NCBI RefSeq assembly: GCF_000215085.1
Contig: NC_015589.1
Span: 3,360,120 to 3,424,119 of the forward strand
Length of the DNA stretch: 64,000 bases
Direction of reading: 5' to 3'
Origin: Desulforamulus ruminis DSM 2154
GTDB lineage: Bacteria; Bacillota; Desulfotomaculia; Desulfotomaculales; Desulfotomaculaceae
The notes beneath the pieces were generated by a model. The model worked only from the letters and a program-made list of their open reading frames with translations, ran no database searches and was not told the origin of the DNA. This document shows, piece after piece, positions 6,183 through 38,551 of this stretch. Position 1 is the stretch's first letter; each line of letters starts with the position of its first letter. Both the position numbers and the translations under genes were made by a program.

Positions 6183-6617
6183 TTATTTAGCCCAGGAAAA
6201 AATGCTTTTGTCTCTATTTTCCCTCGTCAGGTCATTGGCTATGTCAATATGATTGGGTACAAACAAGAAGATTCCCTGGCCGACCTTTTGCGAATTTCCT
6301 CCCAAGGCAAAGGTGGTTCCGCTGATAAAGTCAATAAGACGGCGGGCCTGATCCGCCCCGGCTTTTTCCAGATTCACAATCACAGCCCTGCGGTTTTTAA
6401 GATTATCGGCAATATTTTGGGCATCATCAAAGGATAGCGGCTCACAGACCACAACCTTCAACTGCCGGCCGGAGTGCAGGCTTACAACCTGAGCGTTTTT
6501 CTTTTTCAGTTGCGGGTTAAATTCTTCCTGTTCTTCAGGTTCCCGGACAGATCTTTTTTCAGAAGGTTCTTCTTCTTCAAAGCCGATAAAGTGTAAAAAC
6601 TTGTCCATCATTCCCAC
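6183..6617 (-). CDS. sepF: Cell division protein SepF
   Basis: SepF tethers FtsZ to the membrane and bundles its filaments. The N-terminus MDKFLHFIGFEE is the short amphipathic membrane-binding helix. An acidic linker follows (SEKRSVREPEEQEEFNPQ), then the conserved alpha/beta domain with VVVCEPLSFDDAQNIADNLKNRRAVIVNLE and a C-terminal GIFLFVPNHIDI. The open frame extends upstream to 6671 inside yggS. A GTG at 6617 with AGGGGG 12 bases upstream, or the ATG at 6611, fits the family start better because the membrane helix should be N-terminal. Confidence 0.9.
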   Translation of the reverse strand: MGMMDKFLHFIGFEEEEPSEKRSVREPEEQEEFNPQLKKKNAQVVSLHSGRQLKVVVCEPLSFDDAQNIADNLKNRRAVIVNLEKAGADQARRLIDFISGTTFALGGNSQKVGQGIFLFVPNHIDIANDLTRENRDKSIFSWAK

Positions 6618-34629: not shown

Positions 34630-35682
34630 TTAACGGCGACGCAAAAAGGCAGGGATATCTAAATCGCCATGGCTGGCAAAGGGTTTAATTTCCATTTCTC
34701 CTTTGGATTTGTCTTTTTTAACGGGCATCCTATTTTCAAAACCCGTGGCAATGACCGTTACCCGAACCTCTTCATTCATTCTTTCATCAATCACGGCCCC
34801 AAAGATAATATTGGCTTCCGGGTCTGCCGCCTGAGCAATAATTTCCGCTGCTTCGTTCACCTCAAAGAGCCCCAGGGAAGACCCGCCGGTAATATTCAAC
34901 AGTACACCTCTGGCCCCTTCAATGGATGTTTCCAACAGTGGGCTGGAAATGGCCGCCCGGGCCGCTTCGGTAGCCCTGTTTTCCCCGGTGGAGCTGCCAA
35001 TTCCCATCAGGGCGGAGCCGGTGTCCTTCATAATGGTTTTTACGTCGGCAAAGTCCAGATTGATTAAACCCGGTACGGCAATCAAGTCCGATATGCCCTG
35101 AACCCCTTGACGCAGTACATCGTCGGCGATGCGGAAAGCTTCCACGATGGAGGTATTTTTATCAATGACCTGCAGCAGGCGATCGTTGGGAATGGTAATC
35201 AGGGTATCCACTTTGGTCTTTAAATTCTCGATGCCGGATTCGGCCTGGGTTAGTCTTTTTCTCCCCTCAAAGGTGAAGGGTTTGGTTACTACGCCAACGG
35301 TTAACGCACCAATCTCCTTGGCAATCTCCGCTACCACCGGGGCTGCGCCGGTGCCGGTACCACCGCCCATACCTGCCGTAACAAAAACCATATCCGCCCC
35401 TTTAAGGGCCTGCAAAATTTCATCCCGGCTTTCTTCCGCCGCTTTGCAGCCAATTTCCGGATTTGCCCCGGCGCCCAAACCTTTGGTTAATTTGGTACCA
35501 ATTTGAATTTTGTGGTTACTTTGAGATAGAAAAAGGGACTGGGCATCCGTATTAACAGCAACAAACTCAACGCCTTTGAGCCCAGCACTGATCATACGGT
35601 TCACCGCGTTATTGCCACCGCCCCCAACCCCGATCACCTTGATGTTGGCAAAATGGTCCAGGTCCAGTTCAAAGTCAAGCAT
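34630..35682 (-). CDS. ftsZ: Cell division protein FtsZ
   Basis: A 350-residue tubulin-like GTPase that forms the division ring. The GTP-binding signature [13 protein letters not shown] is near 105-117, and T3/T7 loop motifs ([18 protein letters not shown]) are present. The C-terminal peptide [11 protein letters not shown] is the short conserved tail that binds FtsA and SepF. The ATG at 35682 follows AGAGGAGG by nine bases. Downstream of ftsA and followed by its own terminator. Confidence 0.97.
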
Positions 35683-35726: not shown

Positions 35727-36710
35727 CTACTTTAACCGCCGGGCCAATACCCCGCGCCAGCCAAAAAGGTTTTCTGAACGACGGGAATCTCGTTTGGTAC
35801 CATAAATCAGCAATCCCATGGATGAAGCGTAGCCAGGGCCGGTCCATTCCGCCGGCAGGAGTTTGCCTCCGTTGTTGACGGATCCCAGTTTCACCTGGGG
35901 CAAACCAAGCTGGGAACGTACCCGGTTGATGATTCCTTTTAAAAGAGCACCTCCACCGGTAAGAACCACTCCTCCGGATAAAGATTCAAGACGGTAACAA
36001 TGTTCCACCCTTTGCAAAGCCATTTCCAGAATTTCCTGAACACGAGATTGCATCACCGCCACTGCGGTGCTTACCGGAACTTTTCTGGTTTCCTGTCCCC
36101 CGATTCCGGTAATCTCAAGGTCTAATTCCGGCGAGGGATTCTCCAAGCCCAGTTCCTGTTTAACCCGCTTCGCCTCCCCCAGGGTGGTCCGCAGGCATAC
36201 CGCCAAGTCACTGGTTATGTGTTCACTGCCAATTGGCAGAGAGTCTGCATAAATAAGATTTCCCTGGTCAAAAACAGCCAACCCGGTGGTTGTACCGCCC
36301 AAATCCATGAAAAAGGTTCCTAGCCTCCGGTCGGTTTCCGTTAACACTGCTTCAGCAGCGGCCACGGTGGACACAACCACTTGTTTTATGTCCAGGTCAT
36401 TCAGCATTACACACTGGATTAGATCTTCATCGGTCAGTTCCAGCTCACTGGTTAGTGAACCATAACTGGGAAAGGAAACGTAAACGGCTTTAACCGTTTC
36501 ACCAGCCATGGTTTTAGCCAGAGTCATGGCCCGGGCCATGGATTTACTCAAGGCGGTTTTATCAACCACAACCCCTTTACGAATTCCCAGAGTGGGACAT
36601 TCCCCAAAGCCTTTGATGATTGGCTGGCCATTGGGTCCAATCTCTGCCAAAAGGGCCACTATCTTAGTTGTCCCAACGTCAAGGACCCCGACCACCTGTC
36701 TCCGGCTCAA
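35727..36710 (-). CDS. ftsA: FtsA-like cell division actin homologue lacking subdomain 1C
   Basis: A 327-residue actin-fold ATPase in the ftsA position before ftsZ; usual FtsA is about 400-440. Phosphate loops are recognisable: [14 protein letters not shown] (1A), [15 protein letters not shown] (phosphate 2) and [15 protein letters not shown] (adenosine). The C-terminal amphipathic helix [12 protein letters not shown] is retained. From [12 protein letters not shown] to [21 protein letters not shown] only about 40 residues separate blocks that are about 120 apart in E. coli FtsA, so subdomain 1C (about 80 residues) is missing. The TTG at 36710 has AGGAGG eight bases upstream. Confidence 0.9.
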
Positions 36711-36792
36711 GACAGGCACCTCCTAATGTTTACTTAAACTGTAAATTCAACACAGAATAAAAATTCCCTTTTGCCTTGGAATCAAAAATGTT

Positions 36793-37134
36793 TTATTTTT
36801 TTAGCAAATGACGGCGGATAATGGCTAAATTCTGAAATAAACGAACGCCAAAGGCCACTACGGCAGCGGTACTGAGAGGCACACCCAGTTTGGTGCCCAG
36901 ATAAGCCAAGCCTGCGGCCAGTAAAGCATTGCTGAAAAAGCCGGTGACAAAGATGTTATTGTCATAATGATCTTCCATTGCCGCCCGAATGCCGCCAAAT
37001 ACGGAATCAATGGCTGCCAGCACCGCTAACCCCAGGTACTGGGAATAGGCCTGGGGTAATACCATGGGAACATTTAAACCAACCATTACTCCCAGGACTA
37101 GTCCTCCCAGGGCAAATGCTACGACGGTCCACAT
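36793..37134 (-). CDS. sbp: Small basic family protein Sbp (DUF1290)
   Basis: A 113-residue membrane protein of the Sbp/DUF1290 family with three to four hydrophobic helices (VVAFALGGLVLGVMVGLNVP, YLGLAVLAAIDSVFGGIRAAMEDHYDNNIFVTGFFSNALLAAGLAYLG). The family is found next to ftsA/ftsZ and DUF881 genes in spore formers and actinobacteria; role not defined. GGAGG precedes the ATG. Confidence 0.92.
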   Translation of the reverse strand: MWTVVAFALGGLVLGVMVGLNVPMVLPQAYSQYLGLAVLAAIDSVFGGIRAAMEDHYDNNIFVTGFFSNALLAAGLAYLGTKLGVPLSTAAVVAFGVRLFQNLAIIRRHLLKK

Positions 37135-37136
37135 GG

Positions 37137-37841
37137 TTATTTCGCCTCCTTTAGTGGTTTAGCATATTCTAATTTAACATTATGTTTGTATGCCGGCAGT
37201 AATAGTTCCTCTTGTTTGGTAACTGTGACCTCCCAATCTCTTATACTATCCACCAAGCCTCCCTTGATCAGAAGACTGCTTTCTAACTGGTCGGGTGCTC
37301 CAATGGCCATTATAGTATAAGGCGGGGAAATTCGTGTAAGGTTCACATCGATAAATGAACCGGCCAACCGGATCTCACTGGTGGAGATAATCCTCTGGCC
37401 ATTAATTGATAGAGCCTCGGCCCCGGCAGCCCGCAGTTCGTTGACCACCCTAAGCAGTAGGTCTTCATCACTCACGATATACCAATTATTCTCGTTATGC
37501 TGACCTGCCCTCTGGACCGGCGCAATATAAACCTCTACACCCGGCCCTTTCAGTTGGGTAAACCCGGCGATTTGCCGAACCTTTTGCAGTTCTTCCAGTA
37601 CCGCTTCAGAGGCCTCGGTCTGTCCTTTTTCTGCCCGGGTCAGTTTATTTTCCAGGTCATTGGCTTCGATCAGCAGGGTTACCGTTTCCTTTTCAATTTC
37701 TTTAAGCTGATTTGTCAACAATTGGGCCCGGTCAGAAGGCACTGCCGAATCCACCTGCCCTACGGTGCGAAATTGAAAGGCGATCATCAAACCTAAAATA
37801 ACCGAAACAAATCCTATGGAAAAATATAGTGTTTTTCTCAT
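37137..37841 (-). CDS. DUF881 family protein (YlxW/YlxX type), second copy
   Basis: A 234-residue protein with one N-terminal membrane helix (TLYFSIGFVSVILGLMIAF), a coiled coil (about 35-75) and the DUF881 domain (GPGVEVYIAPVQRAGQHN, LLLRVVNELRAAGAEALSINGQRII, PPYTIMAIGAPDQLESSLLIKGG). It is predicted extracytoplasmic. It overlaps the stop of the preceding DUF881 gene by four bases, and the two are clearly paralogues. Confidence 0.9.
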   Translation of the reverse strand: MRKTLYFSIGFVSVILGLMIAFQFRTVGQVDSAVPSDRAQLLTNQLKEIEKETVTLLIEANDLENKLTRAEKGQTEASEAVLEELQKVRQIAGFTQLKGPGVEVYIAPVQRAGQHNENNWYIVSDEDLLLRVVNELRAAGAEALSINGQRIISTSEIRLAGSFIDVNLTRISPPYTIMAIGAPDQLESSLLIKGGLVDSIRDWEVTVTKQEELLLPAYKHNVKLEYAKPLKEAK

Positions 37842-38551
37842 ATTTCCGATCCCTCTTTAACCGGTTCGGCATATTCCAAGGTGATAGCCCCACCGTAGCC
37901 CGGAATTTCTAGATTGGTTTTTTTAACCACCTTTACCTGGATACCCCAGAATTTAAGCTGCTCCACCACGCCACCCTTCATATACAGGGAGTTTTCCAGG
38001 GTTTGGGGATTGCCAATGGCGGTAATGGTAAAAGGAGCGGGGATTCTTTTATTTTTATTGGTCAGAATGGTGGGCCCAATACAGCGGATTTCACTGGTGG
38101 CAATCAGTCGGACGCCATTCAGGGAAATGGCCTCTGCCCCGGCGGCCTTCAGCTCATTGAGTACTCTGAGTACATCCTCATCATGAACGACATAAAAGTT
38201 GGGGTCCTGTCCCGCAGGTACTTCAATATTGCTGTCATTTAAGGTTACTTCCACCCCCGGGCCAAAAACGGCCTGGTTCCCTGCAATAATGCGGTCGGTA
38301 TCCATTTCTTCCGAAAGGGTTTCCGATTCGCTGGCCGCTTTTTTATCCAGTTTGTCGCGCAACTGCTGAACTCGCTCCTGCAGCAGATCGCGCTCCGCTT
38401 GCTTTTCTTTAATTTCGCTGGCCAGAGCCTGTGCCCTGGCAATGGGCGGTGTTTCGTTAATTTCTTTGGAGTAGCGGTATTGGACCGTCAGCATTAAACC
38501 CAGGGCCAACGCCACCAAAGCCACACCCCATTGATATTGCTTTATTTTCAC
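37838..38551 (-). CDS. DUF881 family protein (YlxW/YlxX type), first copy
   Basis: A 237-residue DUF881 protein with an N-terminal membrane anchor (GVALVALALGLMLTVQY), a coiled coil (about 40-80, EIKEKQAERDLLQERVQQLRDKL) and the conserved domain (FGPGVEVTLNDS, VLRVLNELKAAGAEAISLNGVRLI, PAPFTITAIGNPQTLENSLYMKGGVVEQL). It starts at a GTG that overlaps the ftsQ stop. A division-associated envelope role is inferred from position only. Confidence 0.9.
   Translation of the reverse strand: MKIKQYQWGVALVALALGLMLTVQYRYSKEINETPPIARAQALASEIKEKQAERDLLQERVQQLRDKLDKKAASESETLSEEMDTDRIIAGNQAVFGPGVEVTLNDSNIEVPAGQDPNFYVVHDEDVLRVLNELKAAGAEAISLNGVRLIATSEIRCIGPTILTNKNKRIPAPFTITAIGNPQTLENSLYMKGGVVEQLKFWGIQVKVVKKTNLEIPGYGGAITLEYAEPVKEGSEI

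What the first reader, a model, noticed from the sequence alone, without database searches (positions are those of the whole stretch)
35727..36710. FtsA without subdomain 1C
The protein keeps both phosphate loops, the adenosine motif and the C-terminal membrane helix, but the blocks [10 protein letters not shown] and [15 protein letters not shown] are only about 30 residues apart rather than about 110. The missing part corresponds to subdomain 1C, which in studied FtsA proteins makes the filament contact and recruits later division proteins. The organism also has SepF and two DUF881 proteins, which may compensate.
Basis: partly seen in the sequence, partly recalled or inferred. Interest (0 to 1): 0.65.

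Follow-up and report, generated by a model that had tools for sequence, protein, structure and literature searches.

The report
Cell-division actin missing one subdomain
The bacterium Desulforamulus ruminis and its whole genus carry, as their only true FtsA (the actin-like protein that ties the division ring to the membrane), a naturally shortened version without the subdomain thought to recruit later division proteins, which makes the genus a natural test of what that subdomain is for.

Summary
Confirmed. The ORF at 36719..35727 (minus strand, 330 aa) lies between sbp and ftsZ, passes the curated FtsA cutoff, and models as an FtsA-type actin fold (pLDDT 90.7) with a 14-residue linker exactly where subdomain 1C should be. 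It is not an artefact: all nine genomes of the genus (Desulforamulus) show the same 37-38-residue spacing, none has an SHS2_FTSA domain anywhere, and dN/dS of about 0.12-0.22 in close pairs shows purifying selection. Of 127 matching genomes in a 399-genome phylum sample, only Desulforamulus matches contiguously. Every Desulforamulus genome also has a second, diverged SepF, shared with the family that is its sister in the FtsZ tree. Best reading: a working, minimal FtsA (ATP-binding membrane tether for FtsZ) that cannot make 1C-based antiparallel double filaments, with SepF1/SepF2 probably carrying late-protein recruitment. The DUF881 pair is ordinary synteny. One correction: in published structures 1C makes the lateral, not the longitudinal, filament contact. 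Function is untested.

The parts
35727..36719 (-). ftsA without subdomain 1C, 330 aa, GTG start
36663..36683 (-). phosphate-1 motif LDVGTTK (residues 13-19)
   Evidence: D14, G16, T17, T18, K19 invariant in nine congeners
36429..36470 (-). linker (residues 84-97) that stands in place of subdomain 1C
   Evidence: no helix or long strand and low confidence in the model; spacing comparison
36279..36308 (-). phosphate-2 motif [10 protein letters not shown] (residues 138-147)
   Evidence: D139, G141, G142 invariant
35934..35963 (-). adenosine motif [10 protein letters not shown] (residues 253-262)
   Evidence: invariant T254-G257, L259, L260
35730..35762 (-). C-terminal amphipathic membrane helix [11 protein letters not shown] (residues 320-330)
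   Evidence: G320, W321, R322 invariant; helix 321-329 in the model; hydrophobic moment
34630..35682 (-). ftsZ, 350 aa, intact C-terminal peptide [11 protein letters not shown]
36793..37134 (-). sbp (DUF1290), conserved neighbour
   Evidence: adjacent to ftsZ in FtsA-less relatives
37137..37841 (-). DUF881 protein, ordinary synteny
37838..38551 (-). DUF881 protein, ordinary synteny
6183..6611 (-). sepF1, 142 aa (alternative FtsZ membrane anchor; sepF2 lies outside the window at genome position 2781035-2781250, minus strand)

Best explanation
This is a functional FtsA orthologue that lost subdomain 1C in the ancestor of Desulforamulus. Supported by sequence and model: it keeps an ATP-binding actin fold, a C-terminal membrane helix and selection on both, beside an FtsZ with an intact C-terminal peptide. 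Inferred: it works as a stripped-down membrane tether for FtsZ that may still form single IIA-IIB protofilaments but cannot form the 1C-mediated antiparallel double filament or use 1C to bind a late division protein. Recruitment and activation of septal wall synthesis is then carried by SepF1 and/or the second SepF, which the lineage probably gained before it lost 1C.
For: Curated FtsA score over cutoff; position between sbp and ftsZ. Model pLDDT 90.7, pTM 0.87 with a short loop in place of 1C; Foldseek's top hits are all FtsA (best 1.4e-29), ahead of MreB (2e-17), PilM and EutJ. Shared by 9/9 genus genomes, one origin on the FtsZ tree, no SHS2_FTSA in any of them. dN/dS 0.12-0.22 in pairs with dS of 1 or less; catalytic and GWR residues invariant. 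R226 and E229, aligned with E. coli-type R300 and E303 in 2B, are invariant. SepF is duplicated in all nine and in family f7, and the second copies form one group. No EzrA over cutoff. Literature: B. subtilis can divide with FtsZ plus SepF alone, and Gram-positives lack FtsN, the known 1C ligand (PMC11790237); an E. coli FtsA blocked in 1C-based double filaments can be the sole FtsA if FtsL or FtsW is hyperactive (PMC11323482).
Against: No experiment. In wild-type E. coli the double-filament-defective FtsA does not replace FtsA. SepF2 is one duplication event, and several f7 species have two SepFs with an intact 1C, so its link to 1C loss is only suggestive. The sister position of f7 rests on 83% SH-aLRT support. 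FtsA here diverges fast (47-95% identity within the genus while FtsZ is 92-99%), which would also fit weakening function, although other genera show similar ratios.
Confidence: 0.6

Rival explanations
1. FtsA is on the way out. In an order where SepF suffices, FtsA is only a redundant accessory tether; 1C loss is a stage of decay that ends in loss of the gene, as in many related families.
For: ftsA is absent between sbp and ftsZ in 20 of 20 FtsA-less loci examined, with at least 6 state changes forced on the FtsZ tree; 1C is half-eroded in family f16, where one Pelotomaculum FtsA ends before the membrane helix (L200).
Against: No nonsense or frameshift in nine genomes; dN/dS 0.12-0.22; invariant ATP-site and membrane-helix residues across deeply diverged species. 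Decay and function are not exclusive: the protein may be functional yet dispensable.
Confidence: 0.25
2. The 1C function is supplied in trans by another protein, for example the 621-aa FtsA-superfamily protein at genome 2713579-2714709 or an unrecognised SHS2-fold protein.
For: That protein is present in the genome and matches positions 2-370 of the 371-position FtsA profile, so it spans the 1C region.
Against: It is found across the order in species with full-length FtsA and in others without any FtsA, lacks a PF02491 match and carries ThiS/Mut7-C ubiquitin-like domains; no SHS2_FTSA domain is detectable in the genus.
Confidence: 0.1
3. The protein has been repurposed, for instance as a regulator of FtsZ or a factor for asymmetric sporulation division, and no longer tethers the vegetative ring.
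For: The genus forms spores (established knowledge; sigma factor genes lie next to ftsZ in the window); loss of the recruiting domain would suit a narrower role.
Against: No altered neighbourhood or new domain; still adjacent to ftsZ.
Confidence: 0.04
4. Sequencing, assembly or annotation artefact.
For: None found.
Against: Same form in nine independent genomes, several complete.
Confidence: 0.01

Closest known systems
Canonical FtsA (E. coli 7q6d, V. maritimus 7q6f, S. aureus 3wqt, T. maritima 1e4f/4a2a)
   Same: 1A, 2A and 2B folds, both phosphate loops, adenosine motif, C-terminal membrane helix, place next to ftsZ; best sequence and fold matches
   Different: No subdomain 1C; 330 instead of about 400-420 residues
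FtsA with reduced 1C in family f16 (Pelotomaculum, L209 and L200)
   Same: Same order; 1C shortened; no PF02491 match
   Different: Keeps part of the 1C sheet (strands 90-98, 130-136, 152-159 in the model) but not its first helix; a separate lineage on the FtsZ tree
MreB
   Same: Actin fold of similar length, membrane-binding
   Different: Has subdomain IB, absent here; 39 bits, far below cutoff
PilM
   Same: FtsA-like actin fold with a 1C-type subdomain and a membrane-protein partner (PMC7613929)
   Different: 38 bits against a cutoff of 133; no pilus genes around
EutJ
   Same: Small actin fold of 272 residues (3h1q; TM 0.76-0.78 on the target)
   Different: 43.6 bits against cutoffs of 152-182; different gene context

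Membership tests
FtsA | Curated whole-protein family score (TIGR01174) | tested here: met
   193.6 bits, cutoff 175.85
FtsA | Gene directly upstream of ftsZ | tested here: met
   44-bp gap to ftsZ, sbp on the other side
FtsA | Actin ATP-binding motifs | tested here: met
   invariant in nine congeners
FtsA | C-terminal amphipathic membrane helix | tested here: met
   GWRxVLxRF-type helix; hydrophobic moment 0.58-0.78 in seven of eight, 0.49 in the window
FtsA | Subdomain 1C (SHS2_FTSA), the trait that sets FtsA apart among actins | tested here: not met
   no PF02491 match over cutoff in any genus genome; 14-residue loop in the model. So not a canonical FtsA; an orthologue by descent that lost this domain
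FtsA | Binding of the FtsZ C-terminal peptide through 2B | not testable with these tools
   indirect only: R226/E229 invariant, aligned with E. coli-type R300/E303; FtsZ tail intact
FtsA | ATP-dependent polymerisation | not testable with these tools
   needs biochemistry
PilM | Curated family score and pilus gene context | tested here: not met
   38.4 bits, cutoff 133; division genes around
MreB | Curated family score and subdomain IB | tested here: not met
   38.9 bits, cutoff 293; no IB insertion in the model
EutJ | Curated family score | tested here: not met
   43.6 bits, cutoffs 152-182

The most novel reading that the evidence does not exclude
Desulforamulus is a natural separation-of-function case: FtsA has been reduced to a pure FtsZ-membrane tether that makes no antiparallel double filaments, and recruitment or activation of septal wall synthesis has moved to a duplicated SepF. 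This would show that the 1C-based route is replaceable in evolution and that SepF links early and late division proteins in nature.
Probability: 0.3. Interest if true: 0.75.

Novelty: new variant of a known kind. Interest (0 to 1): 0.62.

Why it matters
How Gram-positive bacteria, which have no FtsN, connect the Z-ring to the late division proteins is an open question (stated in PMC11790237). 1C is the known recruiting and double-filament subdomain of FtsA, studied mainly with point mutants in E. coli. A whole genus that lives with its only FtsA lacking 1C, beside relatives with full 1C, half 1C and no ftsA, is a ready-made evolutionary series for asking what 1C does, whether FtsA without it still polymerises, and whether SepF takes over.

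Tried and rejected
PilM, MreB and EutJ identity: rejected by score and fold ranking. Second full-length FtsA in the genome: none; the other hits are weak actin-family matches, plus a 621-aa FtsA-superfamily protein found order-wide. 1C moved to another gene: no SHS2_FTSA in the genus. DUF881 as compensation: rejected, ordinary gene order also kept in FtsA-less relatives. EzrA as alternative: no match over cutoff, and the sub-cutoff hits resemble those in unrelated control genomes. Specific acceleration of FtsA after 1C loss: FtsA/FtsZ divergence ratio 11.5, within the range of other genera, 3.5-23.6, so not claimed. Literature: nothing found on natural 1C-less FtsA; only open-licence papers were searchable, so absence there is weak evidence. 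The first attempt to hand in this report was malformed.

Full report
Identity. The window lies in a complete 3,969,014-bp genome, the size published for Desulfotomaculum (now Desulforamulus) ruminis DL(T) (PMC3569383). Named loci of the genus with the same protein are D. putei, D. aquiferis and D. aeronauticus. The gene is on the minus strand, 36719..35727, 330 aa, in the order ftsQ - DUF881 - DUF881 - sbp(DUF1290) - ftsA - ftsZ.

The observation. The spacing between the two blocks is 38 residues; in FtsAs of families f4, f5, f6, f7, f9, f12, f15 and f18 of the order it is 105-111. The pairwise alignment to FtsA of known structure breaks at residue 85 and resumes at query 99 / FtsA 170, so the excision is at the domain boundaries of 1C. 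The AlphaFold2 model (49-sequence alignment) is confident (pLDDT 90.7, pTM 0.87) with only a 14-residue low-confidence loop (84-97) there. Foldseek ranks FtsA structures first (1.4e-29 for V. maritimus), then MreB (2e-17), PilM and EutJ. PF02491 is absent from all nine genus genomes and present in the neighbours with full 1C.

It is real and under selection. All nine genomes of the genus have 328-334 residue open frames with full-length matches and spacing 37-38. dN/dS (Nei-Gojobori) is 0.12-0.22 in the pairs with dS of 1 or less. Phosphate, adenosine and GWR membrane-helix residues are invariant; so are R226 and E229, which align with R300 and E303 of E. coli-type FtsA. That this region of 2B contacts the FtsZ tail is from my own knowledge.

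How unusual. With the genus profile, 127 of 399 genomes drawn evenly from the phylum match at 1e-40; only the Desulforamulus members match contiguously (positions 1-329), all others start near position 90-100, i.e. after a 1C, and all but one have frames of over 400 residues (the exception, G306, 369 residues, begins near a contig end and was not examined). A pattern-limited scan of 84,980 species returned short forms only from Desulforamulus among the loci checked. 1C-less FtsAs in phyla not sampled are not excluded.

The evolutionary setting. In family f16 (which contains Pelotomaculum) and in G009 the spacing is 73-103, and PF02491 no longer matches the two Pelotomaculum FtsAs tested. A model of one (L209) keeps part of the 1C sheet but not its first helix. 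In 42 of 113 genomes of the order no FtsA match at 1e-12 was found. In 20 such loci examined, no ftsA lies by ftsZ; in 19 of them sbp and ftsZ are 66-323 bp apart. On the FtsZ tree the 1C-less state has one origin (SH-aLRT 94), and the FtsA-less state needs about ten changes, at least six forced by strongly supported branches. The order thus runs from full FtsA through half 1C and no 1C to no FtsA, in different branches rather than along one line.

SepF. PF04472 is found in 110 of 113 genomes. All nine Desulforamulus and six of seven f7 genomes have two copies; nearly all others have one. Second copies of both groups form one branch apart from all first copies (support 97), and f7 is sister to Desulforamulus on the FtsZ tree at 83. 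Both SepF types keep an N-terminal helix of amphipathic make-up, clearer in SepF2. Simplest order: SepF duplication first, then loss of 1C in Desulforamulus and loss of ftsA in two f7 genomes (G049, G050). This is one duplication, so it has no statistical weight, and f7 species with full 1C show that SepF2 does not by itself lead to 1C loss.

Mechanism. In crystal structures the longitudinal FtsA contact is IIA-IIB, while 1C makes the lateral antiparallel contact and, with 1A, the FtsN site (PMC7613929). In E. coli, FtsA M96E R153D cannot form double filaments and cannot replace FtsA, except with superfission ftsL or ftsW alleles; it still recruits FtsN (PMC11323482). B. subtilis can be stripped to FtsZ plus SepF as ring components, with suppressors, and Gram-positives have no FtsN (PMC11790237); SepF overexpression rescues FtsA depletion there (PMC8178401). 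From this I infer that Desulforamulus FtsA is a tether without double filaments, and that SepF carries the link to late proteins. The fold, the conservation and the distribution are computed results; binding, polymerisation and recruitment are inference.

Verdict. An FtsA orthologue by descent that fails the one structural trait special to FtsA: a new variant of a known kind, genus-wide, and directly testable.

Noticed in passing
G000:C1:2781035-2781250 (L257:4943-5452, minus strand): Second SepF (169 aa) in all nine Desulforamulus and six of seven f7 genomes; stand-alone gene next to uracil transport and salvage-type genes in D. ruminis.
   Followed up: partly
L144-L163 (ftsZ loci of 20 relatives in the order): ftsA is missing next to ftsZ in all 20, and in 19 sbp and ftsZ are 66-323 bp apart: repeated clean loss of ftsA in the order.
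   Followed up: partly
L200 and L105/L106 (Pelotomaculum MAGs, G099/G100): FtsA ends at KYGFVL before the membrane helix; similarity continues past a TGA and a TAA, as if the helix had been cut off by stop codons.
   Followed up: no
G000:C1:2713579-2714709 (L075, minus strand): 621-aa FtsA-superfamily protein with ThiS/Mut7-C ubiquitin-like C-terminal domains, found across the order, function unknown; may be mistaken for FtsA in annotation.
   Followed up: partly
G111:C46:21273-22241: A second FtsZ-like frame, 56% identical to the D. ruminis FtsZ, besides the ordinary FtsZ of that genome.
   Followed up: no
G093:C11 (L294) and G093:C90 (L293): A recent second SepF of the first type in one Pelotomaculum genome, unrelated to the SepF2 group.
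   Followed up: no
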